Shown: piece by piece, positions 5,819 to 17,636 of the stretch | How the letters are laid out: each line of letters starts with the position of its first letter | How positions within the stretch are numbered: position 1 is the first letter of the stretch | Assembly (NCBI GenBank): GCA_021561035.1 | Contig: CP067346.1 | Coordinates: 2,201,001-2,265,000 of the forward strand | Length of the DNA: 64,000 nt | Direction of reading: 5' to 3' | Origin: Clostridioides sp. ES-S-0054-01 | GTDB lineage: Bacteria; Bacillota; Clostridia; Peptostreptococcales; Peptostreptococcaceae | Notes under the pieces: generated by a model | Seen by the model: the letters and a program-made list of their open reading frames with translations, nothing else | Told to the model about the DNA's origin: nothing | Databases searched by the model: none | Made by a program: the position numbers and the translations under genes

Positions 5819-7183
5819 CTACATTATCTTTTTAAGAATCTTAATTAATTTATTATCATATGGAGCATATCTAATAGGAACATCCAAATTTAATTTTTTT
5901 AACACGCTCTTATAATGAGTAAATGTATCAAATCCAGCTTTTCCATGATATGAACCCATACCACTTTCGCCAACACCACCAAAAGGTAAGTAATTCGTAG
6001 CTATATGAATAATTGTATCATTTATACAACATCCACCTGCTGGAATCATTTCTAAAAGTTTATTTTCTAAATGCTTATTTTTTGTAAAAATATAAAGAGC
6101 TAATGGGTTTGGTCTTTGTATAATTTCTTTTACTACTTCATCTAAATCTTTATAGCTTAGAATGGGAAATATAGGTCCAAATATCTCTTCCTTCATTATA
6201 TCATCATCCCAATTAGTATTGTCTACTATAGTTGGCTCTATCTTTAATATTTCCTTATTAAAATTTCCACCATAGACTACTTTGTCATTATCAATAAGAG
6301 ATAATATACGATTGAAATGTTTTTCATTTATGATTTTAGGAAATTGTTCATTATTACATGGATTATCTCCAAAATACTTATTAATATAATACTTTATTTT
6401 TTCTATTAACTCTTCTTTTCTATCTTCATGCACTAAGATATAATCTGGGGCTACACATGTTTGTCCTGCATTTATTAGTTTTCCCCAAGTAAGTCTTTTG
6501 GCAGTAAGGTCTATATCTGCATCTTTTAAGATAATACAAGGGCTTTTTCCTCCAAGTTCTAAAGTTATAGGAGTCAAATGCTCTGATGCTGATTTCATGA
6601 CTATTCTACCAACATTAGTACTTCCTGTAAAAAATATATAATCAAATCTTTCTAATAATAACTTTTCACTTTCTTCTTGACTTCCTTGAACAACTGCAAT
6701 ATATTCTTTTGAAAAAGCATTTTCAATTATATCTTTAACTATACTAGATGTTGATACAGAATATTCAGAAGGCTTCAATATAACACAATTCCCTGCTGCC
6801 AATGACCAAACTAATGGTATAAGTGCTAATTGGAATGGATAATTCCAAGGTGACATTATGAGCGTAACACCATAAGGTTGCGGAATAATTTTAGATATAG
6901 ATGGAAAGTTAACCATACCTGAACTAACTCTTTTTATTTTGCTCCATTTTCTTATATTTTTTATAGCAAAATCTAATTCACTGTAAAACATACCTACCTC
7001 GGTCATAAAACCTTCAAAATCCGATTTATTTAAATCTTTCTTAAGTGCCAAAAGTATTTTTTCTTCATTTTGCAATACAACTGACTTAAGTTTCTTTAAC
7101 TGTTCTAGACGAAACGATATATCTCTTGTTTTACCTGTATTATAATATTTTCTTTGCACCATCACTAGCTCATTTATCTCCAT
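5819..7183 (-). CDS. Aldehyde dehydrogenase (class 3-like)
   Basis: A 454-residue NAD(P)-dependent aldehyde dehydrogenase resembling the compact class 3/YwdH group. The visible motifs are MSPWNYPFQL, the cofactor-site FTGSTNVGR, the general-base segment LELGGKSP and the nucleophile in GQTCVAPDY, then EEIFGPIFP and PFGGVGESGMGSYHG near the C-terminus. All expected catalytic residues are present and length is normal. It would oxidise a medium- or long-chain or aromatic aldehyde; the physiological substrate is unknown. It appears monocistronic. The start is supported by GAAAGGA about 10 bases upstream. Confidence 0.9.
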   Translation of the reverse strand: MEINELVMVQRKYYNTGKTRDISFRLEQLKKLKSVVLQNEEKILLALKKDLNKSDFEGFMTEVGMFYSELDFAIKNIRKWSKIKRVSSGMVNFPSISKIIPQPYGVTLIMSPWNYPFQLALIPLVWSLAAGNCVILKPSEYSVSTSSIVKDIIENAFSKEYIAVVQGSQEESEKLLLERFDYIFFTGSTNVGRIVMKSASEHLTPITLELGGKSPCIILKDADIDLTAKRLTWGKLINAGQTCVAPDYILVHEDRKEELIEKIKYYINKYFGDNPCNNEQFPKIINEKHFNRILSLIDNDKVVYGGNFNKEILKIEPTIVDNTNWDDDIMKEEIFGPIFPILSYKDLDEVVKEIIQRPNPLALYIFTKNKHLENKLLEMIPAGGCCINDTIIHIATNYLPFGGVGESGMGSYHGKAGFDTFTHYKSVLKKLNLDVPIRYAPYDNKLIKILKKIM

Positions 7184-8809: not shown

Positions 8810-10081
8810 TTACTCTAAAACATACTTTTTATACTTATTATATTCTATATTTCCACATTCTACATCTAAAAAAGTTCCCTCTTCTCTGTATTCCATACTT
8901 ATAACACTTGTATTCTCATTAAAATAAGAAACTATATGACCTTTGTCATATGGAATTAAGAAGCTACATCTTATATAATCTTTAAATATACTATCACAAA
9001 TACACTTTATCATTCTATCTATATTTATATCTTTTTTAACTGAAACAAATATACCTTCTTTGTCGATATTATCTACAATCTTATCTAATACGTCTTTATC
9101 AATTAAATCAATTTTATTATAAACATGTATCAGAGGTATATCATCTGCACCTATTTGTTTTAAAGTATCTTCTGTTACTTTAATATGACTTTTATAGCCT
9201 GGATTTGAAATATCAATAACATGTAATAATATATCTGCCTCACATGCTTCTTCTAATGTTGACCTAAATGCTTTTACTAAATCATGAGGTAGATTACTTA
9301 CAAATCCAACAGTATCAGATAATAAAAATTCTTTGTTATTTGAAATAACTATATTTCTAACAGAAGTTTCCAGTGTAGCAAATAACATGTTTTTCTCAAA
9401 TACTTTCTTTTCTTCAGAGTTTTTAAATGTATCTACTAATTTATTCATTATTGAAGATTTACCAGCATTTGTATATCCAACTAGAGCTACATTTGGAAGA
9501 TTTGATTTTCTTCTCAGACTTCTTTGAGTTTCTCTTTGGAATTTTAAATCATTTAATTCCCTATTTAAAGATGTTATCTTTTCTTCTATTCTTCTACGGT
9601 CAAGTTCTAACTTTTTCTCACCATAACCTCTATTTTTAGTACCAACACCACCACTTTGACGCCCTAAATTTTCATTTGAACCTATAAGTCTTGGCAACAT
9701 ATATTTTAAACTTGCCACTTCTACTTGAAGTTTAGCTTCTCTAGTTTTTGCTCTCTTTGCAAATATATCAAGTATCAATGCTGTTCTATCTATAATTTCA
9801 CAATTAAGCTTTTCTTCAAGATTTTTTAGTTGTGATGTAGAAAGTTCATTGTAAAATATAACAATCTCTGCATTTTCCTTCTTTATTAAGTTTAATAATT
9901 CATCAACTTTACCTGTGCCAATGTAATACACTCTATTAACCTGCTTTGCATTTTGAGTTATACTTCCAGCAACCTCAATATCACATGCTGAACATAAGTT
10001 TTCAAGCTCAATCATCAGTTCATTAAAATCCTCAGATTTATTATTTATGTTTAATCCTACTATTATCCCTTTTTTCGCCAT
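8810..10081 (-). CDS. hflX: GTPase HflX
   Basis: Ribosome-associated GTPase of the HflX family, which splits stalled or hibernating 70S ribosomes. The N-terminal domain (YYIGTGKVDEL) is followed by a helical segment with LGRQSGGVGTKNRGYGEKKLELDRRRI (split motif), then the G domain: VGYTNAGKSS (P-loop), LLSDTVGFV (G3) and HVYNKIDL (G4). About 423 residues, the usual length. The second ATG (10081) is preferred because GGAG is 9 bases away; the ATG at 10087 is only 3 bases from it. Monocistronic, with its own terminator. Confidence 0.93.
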   Translation of the reverse strand: MAKKGIIVGLNINNKSEDFNELMIELENLCSACDIEVAGSITQNAKQVNRVYYIGTGKVDELLNLIKKENAEIVIFYNELSTSQLKNLEEKLNCEIIDRTALILDIFAKRAKTREAKLQVEVASLKYMLPRLIGSNENLGRQSGGVGTKNRGYGEKKLELDRRRIEEKITSLNRELNDLKFQRETQRSLRRKSNLPNVALVGYTNAGKSSIMNKLVDTFKNSEEKKVFEKNMLFATLETSVRNIVISNNKEFLLSDTVGFVSNLPHDLVKAFRSTLEEACEADILLHVIDISNPGYKSHIKVTEDTLKQIGADDIPLIHVYNKIDLIDKDVLDKIVDNIDKEGIFVSVKKDINIDRMIKCICDSIFKDYIRCSFLIPYDKGHIVSYFNENTSVISMEYREEGTFLDVECGNIEYNKYKKYVLE

Positions 10082-10169
10082 ATCCATACTCTCCTTATCT
10101 GCTACTTTTTATTTAATATATAACACGAGATTATGGCTCTATAATTAAATTCATCAAGAATTCTATTTT

Positions 10170-10952
10170 CTAACTTATCCTTAAATGACAATAATTATTA
10201 TCAACATCATTATTATGAATTGATAACTCTATATTAGGAAAAATAAGTTTGATAGTTTCAACCATTCTGTCGAAAAATCCGTCATTATCTTTGTATCCGT
10301 TTCTTTTGCGTAGAATAATAGAGAAACGAACATTTTCTATTTCACTTAATATATCTTTATAATAGTTTAAGTGCTTTTCTAACAACATTTTTTCACAAGT
10401 GTAAGACCCTGTATCTATACCAGATGAAACCATACAATATAAGCCAAAATGTGAATATAAATCTTTACCTACAAAATTTTGTGCTCTTATTGCCCTAGCA
10501 GTAGTAGCCATGTGGATAGGTATGGTATTATTTTCTTCTTTTCTTTTTAATTTATCAGCAATAATTATTGCCAACATATTTGAGGGGTCTGCAAGTGTTT
10601 CTGTCCCTCGTAAAGCACTTACTACGTTATATTGATCTACGGAGCCAAAAACGCTACAGCTACCTAATGGAGCAGAGGGAGAAAGCATAATCGTCTTGAT
10701 ATCCATATTGAATGCTTTTCTCAATAATTTTGATTCCAAAGTATGAATTTCTTCTGGATCTATACTGCTAGGGATAGTAAATCTATTTAGTTGGTATGAC
10801 TTTAGAATATCAGTTGCAGTTAAAGTATTTGCTTGTCTATCAAACACTTCTAATAGAAGTGAGTTCAAATCTGATTTTGATAGAGCTGATAACTTATCAA
10901 CTATATTCTTATCCCCAATTTTATTTGTAATTCTACTTAAAATATCACTCAT
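10170..10952 (-). CDS. Conserved-looking protein of unknown function in a Crp-controlled module
   Basis: A soluble protein of about 260 residues without membrane segments. I do not recognise the family. Notable stretches are LGSCSVFGSVDQYNVVSALR, TETLADPSNMLAIIIADKL, HMATTARAIRAQNFV and HFGLYCMVSSGIDTGSYTCE. The pattern is loosely reminiscent of class II aminoacyl-tRNA-synthetase-like folds such as HisZ, but I cannot support that. The start at 10952 (MSDILSRI) is set by GGAGGATAACT. The gene has its own promoter with a GGTCA-N2-TGACC box, the same layout as the nucleotidyltransferase gene upstream, so both are likely controlled by the Crp/Fnr protein at 12015-12635. Confidence 0.6.
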   Translation of the reverse strand: MSDILSRITNKIGDKNIVDKLSALSKSDLNSLLLEVFDRQANTLTATDILKSYQLNRFTIPSSIDPEEIHTLESKLLRKAFNMDIKTIMLSPSAPLGSCSVFGSVDQYNVVSALRGTETLADPSNMLAIIIADKLKRKEENNTIPIHMATTARAIRAQNFVGKDLYSHFGLYCMVSSGIDTGSYTCEKMLLEKHLNYYKDILSEIENVRFSIILRKRNGYKDNDGFFDRMVETIKLIFPNIELSIHNNDVDNNYCHLRIS

Positions 10953-10983
10953 AGTTATCCTCCATACTGTTACTTTCAAAATA

Positions 10984-11024
10984 ATTATAGAATGGTTACA
11001 ACAACTAATCTAGGTCATTTGACC
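10984..11024 (-). promoter_or_regulatory. Class-II activator promoter with GGTCA-N2-TGACC box
   Basis: TATAAT (minus strand, 10984-10989) predicts a start near 10977. The box GGTCATTTGACC (plus strand, 11013-11024) is centred at 11018.5, about 41.5 bp upstream, the classical position of a class-II Crp/Fnr activator. The -35 (TAGATT) is poor, as expected of an activator-dependent promoter. Confidence 0.65.
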
Positions 11025-11032
11025 AAAAATGA

Positions 11033-11067
11033 AAAAACACTGAATATTTACTATTCAATATTTTTTT
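11033..11067 (-). terminator. Terminator after the nucleotidyltransferase gene
   Basis: TGAATA (11041-11046) and TATTCA (11052-11057) arms are flanked by A-rich and T-rich runs on the two sides, so it could act in both directions. Confidence 0.6.
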
Positions 11068-11076
11068 ACTTTGGGT

Positions 11077-11859
11077 TTATTTGATTAAATCTTGAAAATA
11101 CTGTAATGCAACCCTTTCAGCTTCAACCTTTCGGACAATAGGACTTTGTGATAATTCCTCTCTTAACTCAAGATACAGGTTGATAGTAGCCTGCAATGCA
11201 TTAACACAGCTTTCATATTCATGGGTAGCAACCGTCTTTTCTAATGCTTCAATATATTGGGGTGCGTCCAATTCAATTTTTCTAACTCCACGAGGTAATT
11301 TACCTAAGAGAAGCTGTATTAATGGGGCAAGTACTGATTGTCTTAAAAAAGATAAAAAATCAATTGTTTCAAATAGTTCTCTACGTCCAATCTTAGTGCA
11401 AGCGTAATGAACCCAAATCCAAAATCTATCTTCAATCCACTGTAAGTCTGGAGTTGGGAAGTATGCTTCTTTTTTAGAATAAATTTCTGTTATGCAGTTG
11501 TTTTCTTCATAGAGAATAGCTGAATCTTCAACCCTATCTAGTAAACCATCTAAGGTTGTAAACTTAAAATCAACATGAAGAACAGGGGAATCATAGAGGG
11601 AAATTATCAATCGAGGTTCTCCAACGTGTTCGCCAGTAAAAGCAGAAACTAATGTTCCAAACTGTTCCACAATAAGTAATCTCTCTTCGATAACTTCTTC
11701 ATAGGATTTATCATCTGCTACAATCAGAAAATCCAAATCAGAATATTCATCTAACGATTTTGTGATATAAGAACCGCTAATTGCAAGTCCTATTATCCTA
11801 CTATCTCTTTTTGAAAATTCTAATACGTTTTGTATCATTTCCTGTTGTGTTTTAGTCAT
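11077..11859 (-). CDS. Nucleotidyltransferase-domain protein (Pol-beta-like fold)
   Basis: A 260-residue protein. The N-terminal part holds the nucleotidyltransferase signature: LAISGSYITKSLDEYSDLDF gives the GS motif and DxD metal-binding pair, and a third acidic residue is likely in LHVDFKF. The C-terminal half is helical. Related enzymes include aminoglycoside and lincosamide nucleotidyltransferases, but substrate specificity cannot be read here and a resistance role should not be assumed. Ribosome site GAGAGGTG. It has its own Crp-type promoter and terminator and lies between the regulator gene and the unknown gene at 10170. Its G+C is higher than that of flanking core genes, suggesting acquisition. 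Confidence 0.75.
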   Translation of the reverse strand: MTKTQQEMIQNVLEFSKRDSRIIGLAISGSYITKSLDEYSDLDFLIVADDKSYEEVIEERLLIVEQFGTLVSAFTGEHVGEPRLIISLYDSPVLHVDFKFTTLDGLLDRVEDSAILYEENNCITEIYSKKEAYFPTPDLQWIEDRFWIWVHYACTKIGRRELFETIDFLSFLRQSVLAPLIQLLLGKLPRGVRKIELDAPQYIEALEKTVATHEYESCVNALQATINLYLELREELSQSPIVRKVEAERVALQYFQDLIK

Positions 11860-11920
11860 AATATAACACCTCTCACTTTCTTTTATTAGCTATCAATCCA
11901 ACATAATTATGCATACGAGT

Positions 11921-11961
11921 ATTATATAATGAAGAAATAAAAAAAAATAGGTCAATTGACC
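11921..11961 (-). promoter_or_regulatory. Class-II activator promoter with perfect GGTCAATTGACC palindrome
   Basis: TATAAT on the minus strand (11921-11926) and GGTCAATTGACC (11950-11961, centre 11955.5). The box centre lies 34.5 bp from the downstream edge of the -10, exactly the distance found at 10984-11024, giving an inferred -41.5 placement. Confidence 0.7.
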
Positions 11962-11967
11962 CGAAAT

Positions 11968-12004
11968 AAAAAAGTATTGAATAATTATTATCCAATACTT
12001 TTTT
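11968..12004 (-). terminator. Terminator of the Crp-like gene
   Basis: AAAAAAGTATTG (11968-11979) pairs with CAATACTTTTTT (11993-12004), a strong hairpin with A/T tails on both strands. Confidence 0.8.
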
Positions 12005-12014
12005 GAAATTATAC

Positions 12015-12635
12015 TTATGTTGTAGGAAGATTCTTTAATACCTCTCGCTGATTAATTACACTAAATCTTTTGTTTTCATAAGCAATTAGATGTTCTTGTA
12101 CACATTCATTTATAGCACGATTAATGCTTCTAATTGGAGCGTTTACTTCGCTAGCAAGCTGTTTTTTGGTAAGCAGATTTAATTCACTTCTATAATAGTG
12201 TAAGGATATACACCTCAGAAGTCGTTCTTTAACACTTAAAGATGATAATTCTTCAATTAATTCAGCATTTACAACTAATTTACTAGATATTTCTCGAATC
12301 AGAAATTTTGTAGCTTCAAAATCTCCCCTTAACCAGTTTAAAAAATCATCTCTATGAAGTTTATATACATTACAATCTGTGAAAGCGACAATTTCAACGG
12401 GTTTTTTCCCATCATTAAATTGTTCCATTTCTCCAAAAAAACTACCACTTCTATAAAGATGAATAGTTGAGATGTTTCCTTTCACATTTAAGATGAATGC
12501 TTCTGCAATACCGTCAATCATAAGAATTACATATTCATTTTCTTGCTCAGCAAAAAGAATAGTCTCTTTCTTTTTATACGTTTTTTTAACAAGCTTCTTT
12601 TTAATATCTTCATTCATAAAATCAATTAAATGCAT
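12015..12635 (-). CDS. Crp/Fnr-family transcriptional regulator
   Basis: About 206 residues: an N-terminal cyclic-nucleotide-binding-type beta-roll (VILMIDGIAEAFILN, GSFFGEMEQF), a dimerisation helix, and a C-terminal winged helix (LLTKKQLASEVNAPIRSINR). The recognition helix APIRSINRAI lacks the RETVxR core that reads TGTGA, consistent with the different GGTCA half-sites found upstream of the next two genes. The ATG at 12635 is preferred because the ATG at 12641 abuts GGAGGG. No cysteine cluster for an Fe-S centre is seen. Likely activator of the two downstream genes (inference from promoter geometry). Confidence 0.8.
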   Translation of the reverse strand: MHLIDFMNEDIKKKLVKKTYKKKETILFAEQENEYVILMIDGIAEAFILNVKGNISTIHLYRSGSFFGEMEQFNDGKKPVEIVAFTDCNVYKLHRDDFLNWLRGDFEATKFLIREISSKLVVNAELIEELSSLSVKERLLRCISLHYYRSELNLLTKKQLASEVNAPIRSINRAINECVQEHLIAYENKRFSVINQREVLKNLPTT

Positions 12636-12722
12636 ATTCATCCCTCCTTACCAAATCTTTGATTAAATTATATCATCTTTCAATTAGTTAGGTAAGATAG
12701 TAAAAATATATTTACATAGAAA

Positions 12723-13532
12723 CTATTCCATTATTATTTTCCAGTTGTCATTTTTCTGCAAAGTAAGCTCAAACTGGGAAAGCTGTGTAACTTTGGTTTC
12801 CTTATCAAGGTATTTCACTGTTACAATAGCGGTCACTTGATTGTTAACTTGTGTATAAACAGGATTCACAAGTTCCACAAATACATAATCTTTATTAATT
12901 ACATCAAGTGCTTGATTACTTACATAGTAAGATAGCTCTTTTTCTGTTGCAGTAGGATAGAGCTTGAAGAATGTGTCTAGGAAACTATTAATTTCCTCTG
13001 TTGTATTTGCGTCCAACGTTTAGTCACTATCAGAAAGTACAGGCTCATAGCTTACCTTTTGTGGCTTGCTGTCAATGGTAGGGTTCTTAATAATTACCAT
13101 ATTGCCTACTTCATCTACATAGACAGTAACAGTATAGGTGGAAGCGATATTCTTTTTGTTCTCGCCCTCTGAAATCTGTTGTCCTACTGAAAAGAGTACA
13201 TCATAGGCATTTTCATTGTTCTGTGTCACACTCCATACTTGAAAGCTGTTGACAATAGAACTAGTAGGAATATCCGAGCGAACCATTTCAGTATTCAACT
13301 GTTGTAGGTTTTCAGTCAGATAATTCTTCAAACGTTCAATTCGTTTGTCCTGTGAATCTTGCGACTGTTGCCATGAAAAATATTCCTTGCTAAAGGATTC
13401 TACAAAACTCTCAATGCTATTCGTATAAACAACCTGTTTCTCAATGATTTCTTTTTCATGAACGGTGTGCATATCAATGGCTGTAAAGTTCTTATAAATT
13501 CCAAAGCTCATACTTCCTATCAATAATAAATT
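12723..13532 (-). pseudogene. Tn916 orf13-type transfer protein (TcpC family), broken
   Basis: The sequence matches the conjugal transfer protein encoded by Tn916 orf13: IYKNFTAIDMHTVHEKEIIE near the start, MVRSDIPTSSIVNSFQVWSV, YTVTVYVDEVGNMVIIKNPT, then NSFLDTFFKLYPTATEKELS and NQVTAIVTVKYLDKETK. Two lesions are visible. The N-terminal cytoplasmic part and most of the single membrane helix are deleted up to the end of orf14. An in-frame TAA (around 13020-13022) separates LSDSD from LDANTTEE. TcpC is a VirB8-like assembly factor at the membrane; this copy cannot be functional. Confidence 0.85.
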
Positions 13533-13537
13533 CCTTT

Positions 13538-14157
13538 CTATTTGATAATGCGTCCAGCTCCAATTAAATGAGCTTGCCAATAACTGTCGGTAAGGTTGGT
13601 ATATCCAATCGGATTCCCTGCATGGTACATTTGGTTATTACCAACATAGATTCCAACGTGCGTCACATAACTACCAGCGTCATAGGTCGAGTGGAAAAAG
13701 ACTAAATCTCCAGCTTTGGATTCGGATAAGGGGATATGCTGTGTTGCGTCATATTGAGCTTGTGCAACTCTAGGAAGTTGAATCCCAGCTACGGCATAAC
13801 TCCATTGTGTCAATCCGCTACAATCAAATGAAGTAGAGGGAGAAGAACCACCAAAGACATAAGGGTAACCCTCATATTTCAGTGCTTCATTCATAATTGC
13901 TTGCACAGTTTCATCATCAAACTGGACTGGTGTAAGGTATTGTGAAACAAGTAATACATAGAACTGATTTCCGTAGTTGTATCTCCAACCACCATTTATA
14001 GGGATTGCGATAGGATTTTGGTAATCAACCTTTACACCACCAGCTTTATCCTTTGAAAAAGATTCTGCCAGTTCATAGCTGTATTTCTTTCCATTGCTAG
14101 CTACATAATTGATGAAGCCACCGCCATAGTTGTAAGACTGAATGACAGTATTAATAT
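13538..14157 (-). pseudogene. Tn916 orf14-type cell-wall hydrolase (lysozyme-NlpC/P60), N-terminally deleted
   Basis: The conserved part starts at INTVIQSYNYGGGFINYVAS (end of the lysozyme-like domain) and continues through NPIAIPINGGWRYNYGNQFY to a complete NlpC/P60 domain: YPYVFGGSSPSTSFDCSGLT (catalytic Cys), KAGDLVFF and VTHVGIYVGNNQMYHAG (His). The stop is after AGRIIK. The upstream half, with signal and catalytic Glu of the muramidase domain, has been deleted and the remainder joined out of frame to an orf21 fragment. An internal ATG (MQAIMNEALKYEGYP, 13906) could still express the isolated NlpC/P60 domain, but without a secretion signal. Confidence 0.85.
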
Positions 14158-14678
14158 CACAGCCGTTGCTTCATCAATCTGAATACGACTAGCGATAGTA
14201 TCATAAAGCAAGGTGTACTCAATATAGGAATCCTTTAATTCCTTATCCACAAGTTCACAATACAAACCAGTTTCTAGCTTATTTTCAAGCTGTAAAAGTT
14301 GGTCTTGATACTTTCCCATAGTGATTTCAACATTGATGTGAATAAGCCCATCTTTGAGATAGTAGTACATCTTAGGAAAATGACTGATTCGCTCTTTTGT
14401 CTGTGTTCTAACTGTTTGATGTTATCAATCTTATAGTAGTAATAAAGAAAAGCCACAATAAGGCATACAAAAAGGGCAGTGATTACACTACCTAAGAAGT
14501 ACAGAGTTTGTAGTTGATTGATAAAATCATCAAGTGTGACCGTTTCCCAATTCACAGCCATAAGCGACCTTAAATGAAAAGGTATCATGACACAAGAGAA
14601 TAAGGTAACCATTGAAACAGTAAAGAAGTTAGACAGCAAATGCTTGTCACTTTGCTTTATCTTTTTTCCACGATACTG

Positions 14679-16169
14679 GGTAATGTAAAATAATTTGTGC
14701 TTCAAGGTTAATAAAAATCTTCTTTATGGCAATGATTTAAATATAATCAAATGTCGTAAAGGAGATTTTTTATGAATACTTTAAGAAAACAATTAGTCAA
14801 AGAAATTATATCAGATGGAGAATTTATAAAATCTGGAGATATAAGTAGCTATCTAAGAGATATGTTCAAAGATATACTACAAGAGATGTTAGAACAAGAA
14901 ATGGCATTAGAGCTAGGTTATTAAAAGGGCGACAGCCATAACAAGAATACAACTAATAGAAGAAATGGATATAGCAAAAAAACTGTAAAATCACAATTTG
15001 GAGATTTACAACTAGACGTTCCAAGAGACAGAGATAATGACTTTAACCCAGTAGTCGTTCCTAAAAATATTAGAGATATTTCAGGAATCGAAGAAAAAAT
15101 AATATCACTTTATGCAAGAGGTATGTCAACAAGAGATATACATGACCAGATATTAGATTTATACGGTATAGAAATTTCAGCTGATCAAGTAAGTAATATA
15201 ACAAATGTTATAATTCAAAGAGCTAAAGAGTGGCAAAATAGACCTCTTGAACAAGTTTATCCTTTTGTATTTATGGATGCAATTCATTACAAAGTAAGAG
15301 ATGATGGAAAAATAAAAAATAAAGCTGCATATGTAGTTCTAGGAGTAAATAAGGATGGTTTCAAAGATATTTTAGGAATATGGATAGGTGAAAACGAAAC
15401 TTCAAAGTTTTGGTATAGTGTTTTAACCGATTTAAAAAATAGAGGTGTTAAAGATGTACTAATTTTTAGTGTTGATGGATTAAATGGCTTCAAAGAGGCG
15501 ATAGCCGCAAGTTATCCTAATTCTATAATACAAAAATGTATAATCCATCAGATAAGAAATACTTTTAAATATGTTTCATACAAAGATTCAAAAGCATTAA
15601 TAAGTGATTTTAAATCTGTATATAAAGCAGTTAATGAACAAGAAGCCTCATCGGCTTTAGATAAAATAGATGAAAAATGGGGTAAACAGTATCCTTCGGC
15701 AATTAAAATTTGGAGAAATAACTGGGATGTTATAGCACCATTTTTTAGTTTTCCTGAAGAAATAAGGACTATAATGTACACTACAAATATAATTGAAGGA
15801 CTTAATAGACAGTTTAGAAAAGTCACAAAAACAAAGTCCACTTTTCCATCAGATGATTCACTATTAAAAATATTGTTCTTAGCAAGTGAAAATGTGATGA
15901 AAAAATGGACTATGAGATATAGAAACTGGGATAGTATATATAATCAGTTATCTATATTCTTTGATAATAGAATATAATTTTAAAAAATCATATTCTAAAA
16001 ATTTGCCATAATATATATGGTTTACAAAAATATTTAAAAATATCCCAGTATATATTTTTTACAATTTATTAGAATAAAATTCATATATTGGGAAATATTA
16101 ATAGTAAATAAATAATTGTTGCTATAAAGTAGAAATTATCTTTAAAAGCACAAATTAATTTACAGTCTC
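14679..16169 (+). mobile_element. IS256-family insertion sequence
   Basis: A 1491-bp element. The 24-bp ends match at 20 of 24 positions in inverted orientation (14679-14702 against 16146-16169, core TAATTTGTGCTT), similar in style to IS256 ends containing TAATTGTG. One transposase gene is on the plus strand, opposite to the host orf21. The A+T-rich composition is like the C. difficile background and unlike the conjugative element it entered. Confidence 0.88.
14772..15977 (+). pseudogene. IS256-family (Mutator-type) transposase with one internal stop codon
   Basis: Reading from the ATG at 14772 (GGAG 6-10 bases upstream) gives MNTLRKQLVKEIISDGEFIK and ALELGY, then TAA as codon 51 (14922-14924). 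The same frame continues KGDSHNKNTTNRRNGYSKKT, QFGDLQLDVPRDR and on to the stop after FFDNRI. Total length without the stop would be 401 residues, normal for the family. The DDE residues are intact: FMDAIHY, FSVDGLNGF and YTTNIIEGLNRQFRK. A downstream ATG (15123, MSTRDIHDQ) gives 284 residues with the catalytic core but without the N-terminal DNA-binding region. Probably inactive unless the stop is read through. Confidence 0.85.
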
Positions 16170-16199
16170 CGATACTGAAATAGTTTTCTCATAGGCTAA

Positions 16200-16453
16200 C
16201 TATTTCTTATCATGATTCTGTTTCTGGTCGGCTTGCTGGTTTTGTGCTGGTCTTTTCAAGATGATATCTTCGGCTTTGATATACCACTCTACATCTGCAC
16301 CTTGAAATGTGGCAGTAGCCACCGTGTCAGCAATAGGGTTTCGGTTATATTACCCTCATCATCAACAATCTTGACCTCTCTACGTAGAGCGGAAAACTTC
16401 AAATCTCCAAATGTTTTTTCTTTTTCAATTACGACTCCTTCAGCTAATCTCAG
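16200..16453 (-). pseudogene. Tn916 orf22-type DUF961 protein, internally deleted
   Basis: The N-terminal part reads RLAEGVVIEKEKTFGDLKFS and REVKIVDDEGN from a CTG at the expected start position (no ATG there). After a deletion and frame change, the C-terminal part continues NPIADTVATATFQGADVEWY and KAEDIIL with a stop at 16200-16202. About 35 codons in the middle are missing compared with the Tn916 protein. Function of the family is unclear; these are small conserved proteins near the left end of such elements. Confidence 0.75.
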
Positions 16454-16473
16454 GTTTAATTACCTGTCCTTTC

Positions 16474-16788
16474 TTATGCCTTGACGATATCGTCAGCATA
16501 CATGATGTAGTTTGTGAATCCACGAGTTCCGATTTTGTAGCCCTCTGCTGTAATACGTGGGTTTACTAATTTTACTTTTTGCTCGATTTCAAAATGCTTT
16601 TCGCCAGCTTCGGCTGGAAGAATAACGATAATATCGTCCACTCTTTGAATATCAGAATAAAGGTTATAGCTTCGTGAGAGAATGGTAGGTTTTCCATTGA
16701 TTCTTCGCTGTTCAACTTTACCCTCGCCAGCATATTCTAATTGTCCAAATGTTTTTTCCATGTTGGGTATTACGTGTTTTAACTCCAT
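16474..16788 (-). CDS. Tn916 orf23-type DUF961 protein
   Basis: A 104-residue protein, apparently the only intact gene of the conjugative remnant. It opens MELKHVIPNMEKTFGQLEYA and contains SRSYNLYSDIQRVDDIIVIL, VKLVNPRITAEGYKIGT and MYADDIVKA, all characteristic of DUF961 proteins encoded near the left end of Tn916-like elements. Ribosome site AACGAGG. Role unknown; presumed part of the transfer or regulation region. Confidence 0.8.
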   Translation of the reverse strand: MELKHVIPNMEKTFGQLEYAGEGKVEQRRINGKPTILSRSYNLYSDIQRVDDIIVILPAEAGEKHFEIEQKVKLVNPRITAEGYKIGTRGFTNYIMYADDIVKA

Positions 16789-16900
16789 ATATTTTACCTC
16801 GTTCTTTCTTGAATGTGTTTTAGATTAAATTGTAATGTTTTATTGTTAAGGTTGTTCTTGTTGGGGAACGTATCGAGTGCATAAGCTATTCCTTTCCATA

Positions 16901-16944
16901 GAAAAACGCAAGGTACGTCAATGTCTTGTCGTGATCCTTGCGTC
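16901..16944 (-). terminator. Terminator or attenuator upstream of orf23
   Basis: On the minus strand ACGCAAGG and CCTTGCGT form an 8-bp stem with a loop of about 22 bases, followed by TTTTTC. It separates the adhesin remnant from orf23 and would terminate the former or attenuate the latter. Confidence 0.65.
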
Positions 16945-16954
16945 TAGCTTTCTA

Positions 16955-17561
16955 TTATTCAGCTTTTGCTTTTTTACGTCGGAAGTATAGAGCGCTTAAT
17001 GCACTTACAGATAACACAAGACCTAATGCAAAGATAGGATAACATCAACCTTAACAGTAGCTTGCTTTGAACTTTCTAAGTGAAACTCAACAAGGGTTTG
17101 ATGTTGCGGTTTTGTATAAACAATAGAAGTACCAACCTCACTTTGAGGTACTTTACGATAAGTGATAGAACCATCATTTGAACTTGCACTAGGTGTAATT
17201 GTGATGGTATTTCCATTTTGTTGTAAAGTAGCGTTTGTGTTGTTAGATTCTAAAGCCATACCACTTAGAACACCGTTAGAATCTGTCAACGTAATACTAT
17301 CGCCAACTGTTACTTGTACTTCTTGATTGTTCCATGATGGCAGCGTATCATGACTGTTTACCATACATAAATTGGATTGTGCGTGATTGCATAACCTAAG
17401 TGTGGGCTTACTCCTGTATAACTATATTCAGTCGGTTCGTTTAGAACCAATTCACTAGCTGAAACAGAGGTAGGGTTTGTTAAAAACGTACCGCAGACAG
17501 TTACTAAAACCATGATATAGGTTGTTAATTTTCTTAATATACTTTTCGATTTTGTTTTCAT
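16955..17561 (-). pseudogene. LPXTG-type surface adhesin of the conjugative element, twice deleted
   Basis: It starts at 17561 behind GAAAGGA with a signal peptide (KLTTYIMVLVTVCGTFLTNP, then SVSA). It continues SYTGVSPHLGYAITHNPIYV to a stop, so the thioester-type N-terminal domain is deleted. A second frame carries WNNQEVQVTVGDSITLTDSN through TVKVDVI. A second deletion removes the repeat domains and the sorting signal, leaving only the terminal membrane helix and basic tail IFALGLVLSVSALSALYFRR before the stop at 16955-16957. Related full-length proteins on ICEs are cell-wall adhesins with isopeptide or thioester domains. Confidence 0.7.
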
Positions 17562-17636
17562 AGTATTTCCTTTCATAGTAATTTTGCATGAAAAAAGACG
17601 CTCAATTAAGAACGCCTGCAAATAGAAAAGGAACAC

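What the first reader, a model, noticed from the sequence alone, without database searches (positions are those of the whole stretch)
10984..12635. Three-gene Crp/Fnr module with two promoters of identical class-II geometry and a GGTCA-N2-TGACC box
The boxes at 11013-11024 and 11950-11961 are each 34.5 bp from the downstream edge of a TATAAT, giving an inferred -41.5 position twice. They precede an uncharacterised 260-residue protein and a nucleotidyltransferase, next to a Crp-family gene whose recognition helix lacks RETVxR. Matching spacing at two promoters is unlikely by chance. This may be an undescribed regulatory and effector module, possibly acquired together with the adjacent conjugative element.
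Basis: partly seen in the sequence, partly recalled or inferred. Interest (0 to 1): 0.75.

Follow-up and report, generated by a model that had tools for sequence, protein, structure and literature searches.

The report
Mobile Crp-type switch with private operator
A small gene module on mobile DNA in C. difficile, with close cousins in distant bacteria, appears to be controlled by its own Crp-type regulator through an unusual DNA box that lies in front of an undescribed relative of histidyl-tRNA synthetase and, here, a drug-modifying-like enzyme.

Summary
GGTCA-N2-TGACC occurs exactly twice in the 3.93-Mb genome, at these two promoters, each 23 bp before TATAAT on the minus strand (centre -41.5). 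The 260-residue product is a truncated copy of a ~308-residue family; 31 related loci were fetched. The box (at least 9 of 10 bases) stands before 12 of 31. A homologue of the Crp gene flanks 11 of 31, and 10 of those 11 keep the box. Across seven lineages the box is 90% identical, its surroundings about 30%, and the 23-bp spacing stands out (51 of 60 TATAAT matches; next best 34).

So this is a real, horizontally spread module: a Crp/Fnr regulator plus operator in front of a HisRS-fold protein (P308), followed by a GNAT acetyltransferase in 9 of the 11 Crp-positive loci. The nucleotidyltransferase accompanies it only in C. difficile. In this window P308 is cut at 10190 and lacks motif 3. In another C. 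difficile strain the module lies between tcpC and a Tn916-type integrase. Binding, ligand and function are untested; my best guess is inducible protection against a translation-targeting toxin.

The parts
12015..12641 (-). Crp/Fnr-family regulator, 208 aa; cNMP_binding domain plus Crp-type HTH; recognition helix APIRSINR
11968..12004 (-). terminator-like AT-rich hairpin with T-run after the Crp gene, just upstream of the first box
   Evidence: fold -14.7 kcal/mol for 11962-12012; not flagged by the consensus scan
11950..11961 (.). operator box GGTCA-N2-TGACC of the nucleotidyltransferase promoter
11921..11926 (-). -10 hexamer TATAAT, 23 bp after the box
11077..11859 (-). nucleotidyltransferase, 260 aa, streptomycin adenylyltransferase-like (PF04439)
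11032..11066 (-). terminator-like hairpin after the nucleotidyltransferase gene, just upstream of the second box
   Evidence: fold -14.2 kcal/mol for 11025-11080; not flagged by the consensus scan
11013..11024 (.). operator box GGTCA-N2-TGACC of the P308 promoter
10984..10989 (-). -10 hexamer TATAAT, 23 bp after the box
10170..10952 (-). 3'-truncated P308 gene (HisRS-fold family); homology to intact copies ends at 10190, so the DGGFVDW stretch and motif 3 are lost
12723..17636 (-). degenerate Tn916-like element: TcpC pieces, NlpC/P60 piece, IS256-family transposase piece (on the + strand), DUF961 protein

Best explanation
A mobile, self-contained inducible module. The Crp/Fnr-family protein (12015-12641), when activated by an unknown signal, binds GGTCA-N2-TGACC at -41.5 as a class II activator. 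It turns on promoters that mostly lack a good -35 and, in the window, sit behind terminator-like hairpins. Its core target is P308, a HisRS-fold protein without an anticodon-binding domain, usually followed by an Acetyltransf_3-type GNAT; in C. difficile it has gained a second target, an adenylyltransferase-like nucleotidyltransferase. Shown: box, spacing, conservation, association with the Crp gene, fold, mobile context. Inferred: that this Crp protein binds the box, that it activates, and that the enzymes together protect against a toxic compound, most likely one acting on translation. In this window P308 is truncated, so at best the nucleotidyltransferase branch is still complete.
Against: No binding or expression data. 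Two Paenibacillus genomes have the box (L030 10/10, L022 9/10) without a Crp homologue at E<=1e-25, and L019 keeps the Crp gene but has lost the P308 box and -10. At L025 the hexamer at spacing 23 matches TATAAT in only 3 of 6 positions, at L032 and L038 in 4. The P308 tree does not exclude a single gain of the Crp association, so lineages are not fully independent. The two window promoters share their layout, so they are not two independent observations. Four places in unrelated genomes show box + TATAAT at 21-24 bp without the module. The protective role rests on family resemblance only.
Confidence: 0.72

Rival explanations
1. The box is the operator of a different regulator, and the Crp-like gene is only a passenger next to it.
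For: L030 and L022 carry the box at P308 but no Crp homologue was found genome-wide at E<=1e-25.
Against: The box goes with the Crp gene in 10 of 11 genomes and is absent in 14 of 16 without it. A centre at -41.5 is a classic Crp/Fnr position, and the register puts a G where the conserved helix Arg should contact (both recalled from CRP/FNR work). Relic boxes after loss of the regulator, or a more diverged regulator, would explain L030 and L022.
Confidence: 0.13
2. The regulator represses rather than activates, and the position at -41.5 does not mean activation.
For: In L025 and L026 a box lies 20-25 bp upstream of the Crp start codon and just downstream of a TATA-like stretch, as expected for autorepression.
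Against: At the P308 and nucleotidyltransferase promoters the box lies upstream of the -10 at 23 bp, the -35 position is mostly poor (L038 has TTGATA there), and a repressor would not need that fixed phase.
Confidence: 0.12
3. P308 and the GNAT do something unrelated to toxin protection, for example make or modify the small molecule that the Crp-like protein senses, or tune translation under stress.
For: P308 keeps the class II fold and the motif 3 Arg but not the HisRS-specific residues; most family members fetched occur without the Crp gene and GNAT.
Against: Cargo position in a Tn916-like element, addition of an adenylyltransferase-like gene and patchy spread across phyla fit an accessory protective function better.
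Confidence: 0.35
4. Chance palindromes, terminator arms or -35 hexamers in AT-rich DNA.
For: The scan lists the 11949-11962 palindrome followed by a T-run as terminator-like, and TTGACC inside the boxes as a -35-like hexamer with other partners; with 1-2 mismatches the pattern is at chance level.
Against: Conservation of box and spacing amid diverged sequence across seven lineages; resampled upstream regions reach 9 of 10 in at most 7 of 2000 and 10 of 10 once in all. The conserved distance of 23 bp does not suit a -35.
Confidence: 0.01

Closest known systems
CRP (CAP) of E. coli and Vfr
   Same: cNMP-binding fold plus Crp-type HTH; class II position -41.5; Vfr and CRP are the best bacterial matches in the PDB by sequence
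   Different: the Arg-Ser pair of the cAMP phosphate site reads Lys-Pro; helix APIRSINR instead of RETVxR; box GGTCA-N2-TGACC instead of TGTGA-N6-TCACA (known box recalled)
YeiL (PRK10402)
   Same: best NCBIfam match of the regulator, residues 5-205
   Different: 43.7 bits against a cut-off of 180, so not a YeiL by that model
PrfA
   Same: known PrfA box TTAACA-N2-TGTTAA (recalled) has the same CA-N2-TG core and centre; PrfA chains are among the PDB sequence matches (E about 3e-4)
   Different: outer half-site bases differ; one local module here, no wider regulon seen
Histidyl-tRNA synthetase / HisZ
   Different: no anticodon-binding domain, Arg of RGLDYY and Arg of GGRYD not kept (read by eye), extra N-terminal helices
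Aminoglycoside 6-adenylyltransferases (AadE/ANT(6)) and Lnu enzymes
   Same: PF04439 at 40.6 bits, cut-off 22; GS-x10-DLD nucleotidyl-transfer signature in the sequence (signature recalled)
   Different: all named resistance models listed are far below cut-off (best 21.5 of 450)
MccE/RimL acetyltransferases with microcin C
   Same: GNAT of the Acetyltransf_3 type; RimL/MccE inactivate aminoacyl-adenylates (PMC3817062, passages)
   Different: orthology to MccE or RimL was not tested; the pairing with an aaRS-fold protein under a Crp switch did not turn up in the paper searches made

Membership tests
Crp/Fnr superfamily | N-terminal cyclic-nucleotide-binding-type domain | tested here: met
   PF00027 53.4 bits, cut-off 27.5
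Crp/Fnr superfamily | C-terminal Crp-type HTH | tested here: inconclusive
Crp/Fnr superfamily | binds its box as a dimer | not testable with these tools
   needs EMSA or footprinting
cAMP-responsive CRP | Arg-Ser that bind the cAMP phosphate | tested here: not met
   aligned to Vfr the pair reads Lys-Pro, invariant in 8 of 8 homologues; a Lys could still meet a phosphate, so a nucleotide ligand is not excluded
FNR (4Fe-4S) | N-terminal cysteine cluster | tested here: not met
   no Cys before residue 90 in the window protein; only C90 and C180 are invariant Cys in A2
Histidyl-tRNA synthetase | class II catalytic fold | tested here: met
Histidyl-tRNA synthetase | His-specific RGLDYY and GGRYD motifs | tested here: not met
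   the P308 family reads mostly DNxYYxG and DGGFVDW there
Histidyl-tRNA synthetase | anticodon-binding domain | tested here: not met
   members end right after motif 3
Aminoglycoside 6-adenylyltransferase | Adenyl_transf domain | tested here: met
   PF04439 40.6 bits, cut-off 22
Aminoglycoside 6-adenylyltransferase | passes a named resistance-gene model | tested here: not met
   best 21.5 bits of 450
Tn916-like element | TcpC, sigma-like regulator and Tn916-type integrase around the cargo | tested here: met
   in L017: frame identical in its visible part to the window's TcpC piece at 5937-6230, sigma-70 region 4 protein and Tn916 integrase downstream of the module. In the window itself no integrase-sized frame lies between the junction at 10190 and hflX

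The most novel reading that the evidence does not exclude
A new type of transferable, inducible immunity to aminoacyl-tRNA-synthetase poisons (aminoacyl-nucleotide or similar antibiotics). A Crp-like protein senses the poison or its product and switches on a HisRS-like decoy or converting enzyme (P308), a RimL/MccE-like acetyltransferase and, in C. difficile, a nucleotidyltransferase, through a private operator.
Probability: 0.15. Interest if true: 0.85.

Novelty: new variant of a known kind. Interest (0 to 1): 0.62.

Why it matters
It gives a regulator-operator pair whose half-site I recall from no described Crp/Fnr protein, predicted from sequence and directly testable. It also gives a HisRS-fold family without a Pfam family of its own that is scattered across phyla, sits in a Tn916-like element in C. 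difficile, and is paired with enzymes of drug-modifying type. If the protective role holds, it would be an unrecognised inducible resistance cargo.

Tried and rejected
Phage records: no match to 9800-12800. Plasmid records: three short matches (hflX, nucleotidyltransferase, the TcpC side), none to the module as a whole; P308 as protein: one distant match. PDB sequence search with the P308 profile: nothing credible (one match, E 0.07), which is why a fold was predicted. PDB sequence search with the nucleotidyltransferase: no match. Box + N20-26 + TATAAT in 291 class genomes: 5 genomes, six places, two of them the window's; the four others (L010-L013) show no such gene pair in the frames of their 3-kb loci, so I treat them as background. 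The nucleotidyltransferase relatives L095, L009 and L096 have no exact box. Literature: the listings (10 of 1,945 shown; none; 6 of 26 shown) and 79 hold no paper on this module as far as titles and abstract starts tell; only the held open-access library was searched. PMC12531629 and PMC3817062 were seen as passages only. The CRP model has pTM 0.61 and large rmsd to its matches, so it is used for the overall fold only. In the P308 model the strongly conserved stretch 94-120 has pLDDT under 50, so its active site was not read from the model.

Limits of the counts: Crp was searched genome-wide in 26 of 31 locus genomes (L024 not held; L036, L044, L045 and L046 not asked, their flanks only); L024 is counted as Crp-positive from its flank. 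The resampling is first-order, not an exact dinucleotide shuffle. The ten sites leave out L016, L018 and L020 as near-copies, and L017 was not put in. The fetch used one short conserved peptide pattern, so the 31 loci are not all that exist; L045 and L046 are short frames and L036 runs off its contig.

Full report
What is there. The window lies in a 3.93-Mb genome; the closest fetched loci are Clostridioides difficile. On the minus strand three genes follow each other: a Crp/Fnr-family regulator (12641-12015), a nucleotidyltransferase (11859-11077) and a frame of 260 codons (10952-10170). Each of the two downstream genes has its own promoter region with the same order: a terminator-like hairpin after the preceding gene, then GGTCA-N2-TGACC, 23 nt, TATAAT. 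The exact box occurs at no other place in the genome; about 0.5 exact sites would be expected by base composition.

The '260-residue protein'. Thirty-one related loci were found in genome contigs. Of these, 24 of 31 are open for 304-313 residues from the match start. The close matches stop at residue 254 of the window frame, and DNA homology to the intact C. difficile copy L016 ends at 10190. The window copy is thus a 3'-truncated P308 gene, followed by other DNA upstream of hflX; it lacks about the last 54 residues, with motif 3. The P308 frames of three other C. difficile strains and two Enterococcus strains are open for 308 residues.

Is the box real. Upstream regions of the 31 genes were scanned: 8 have 10 of 10, 4 have 9 of 10, 19 have 8 or fewer; a scan of up to 400 bp gives the same 12. 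A Crp homologue (51-100% identical) lies beside P308 in 11 of 31 loci. A genome-wide search of 26 genomes found it in 10, each time at the P308 locus. Among 27 genomes (these 26 plus L024 from its flank), box and Crp gene go together: 10 of 11 against 2 of 16, Fisher p 8e-5; with near-copies collapsed on the positive side, 7 of 7 against 2 of 16, p 1.5e-4. The exceptions are L022 and L030 (box, no Crp found) and L019 (P308 box and -10 lost, the nucleotidyltransferase box kept). In ten sites without near-copies, TATAAT at spacing 23 scores 51 of 60, the next best spacing between 14 and 39 scores 34. In seven lineages of Bacillota and Pseudomonadota the box is 0.90 identical, the -10 0.67, and the 40 bp before, the spacer and the 20 bp after 0.29-0.32. 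This is a phylogenetic footprint; relatedness is not corrected for, and the P308 tree does not exclude one gain of the Crp link.

The regulator. PF00027 passes, PF13545 is just below cut-off. Against Vfr the Arg-Ser pair that meets the cAMP phosphate (recalled) reads Lys-Pro, invariant in 8 of 8 homologues; the helix is A/T-P-I/M-R-S-x-N-R. No Cys precedes residue 90. So 4Fe-4S sensing of the FNR kind is not supported and cAMP is doubtful, but a phosphate-bearing ligand is not excluded. In L025 and L026 a further box lies about 20-25 bp upstream of the Crp start codon, behind a TATA-like stretch, which suggests autorepression there; the window's Crp gene has no match of 9 or more within 250 bp upstream.

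The partners. A GNAT acetyltransferase (Acetyltransf_3, tested on L018 and L021) directly follows P308 in L016-L021, L025, L026 and L038, that is 9 of 31 loci and 9 of the 11 Crp-positive ones, though broken or shortened in the C. difficile loci; L024 keeps a remnant and L032 none. The nucleotidyltransferase is beside the module only in the C. difficile loci. In 291 class genomes a relative at E<=1e-20 was found in 2, own genome included. It matches the streptomycin adenylyltransferase domain but no named resistance model.

Mobility. In L017 the order is TcpC piece, Crp, nucleotidyltransferase, P308, GNAT, sigma-like protein, Tn916-type integrase, the place that tet(M) takes in Tn916 (recalled). 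Two Enterococcus strains have 96-97% identical P308, and in one of them a frame similar by eye to that at 17358-17636 of the window precedes the Crp gene. Relatives occur in Spirochaetota, Cyanobacteriota, Actinomycetota and Pseudomonadota, yet they are rare: P308 in 3 of 291 class genomes, the Crp profile at E<=1e-45 in 1 of 398 phylum genomes, own genome included. The element in the window is degenerate.

Mechanism. Best reading: ligand-activated class II activation of insulated promoters by a local Crp-type regulator, with P308-GNAT as core output and the nucleotidyltransferase as a later gain. A protective role against a translation-targeting compound is an inference from the enzyme types and the mobile setting; RimL/MccE acetyltransferases inactivate aminoacyl-adenylates (PMC3817062, passages), which makes the pairing with an aaRS-fold protein suggestive, no more.

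Verdict. A sound and well-spotted finding: the regulatory half is strongly supported by comparison, the effector half is open.

Noticed in passing
window 12723-17636: Degenerate Tn916-like element: two adjoining frames at 12723-13016 (TcpC by Pfam) and 13020-13580, an NlpC/P60 piece, an IS256-family transposase piece on the other strand and a DUF961 protein.
   Followed up: partly
L018, L020 (Enterococcus): P308 and Crp genes 96-99% identical to those of the window; strain names (BWR/BWM) suggest one sampling set with Limnobaculum L025. Recent transfer between distant hosts seems likely.
   Followed up: partly
L007 1432-1845 and L045 1210-1626: A short P308-like frame; in L007 it directly follows a frame that looks like an alanyl-tRNA synthetase (by eye).
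   Followed up: no
L010, L011, L012: GGTCACCTGACC with TATAAT 23-24 bp downstream in three genomes of one genus, near other genes; may be a different conserved site.
   Followed up: no
L008 5986-6945: A distant P308 relative on a Chroococcidiopsis conjugative plasmid lies near a sigma factor, VOC, YciI and GFA genes.
   Followed up: no
L033 7427-8020 and L034 6248-6754: GNAT genes lie upstream of P308 in genomes without a detected Crp homologue, so a GNAT-P308 link may be older than the Crp control.
   Followed up: no
G680 (genome of L022): TTGGTCANNTGACC with up to one mismatch is about twice as frequent as its reversed control although no Crp homologue was found there.
   Followed up: no
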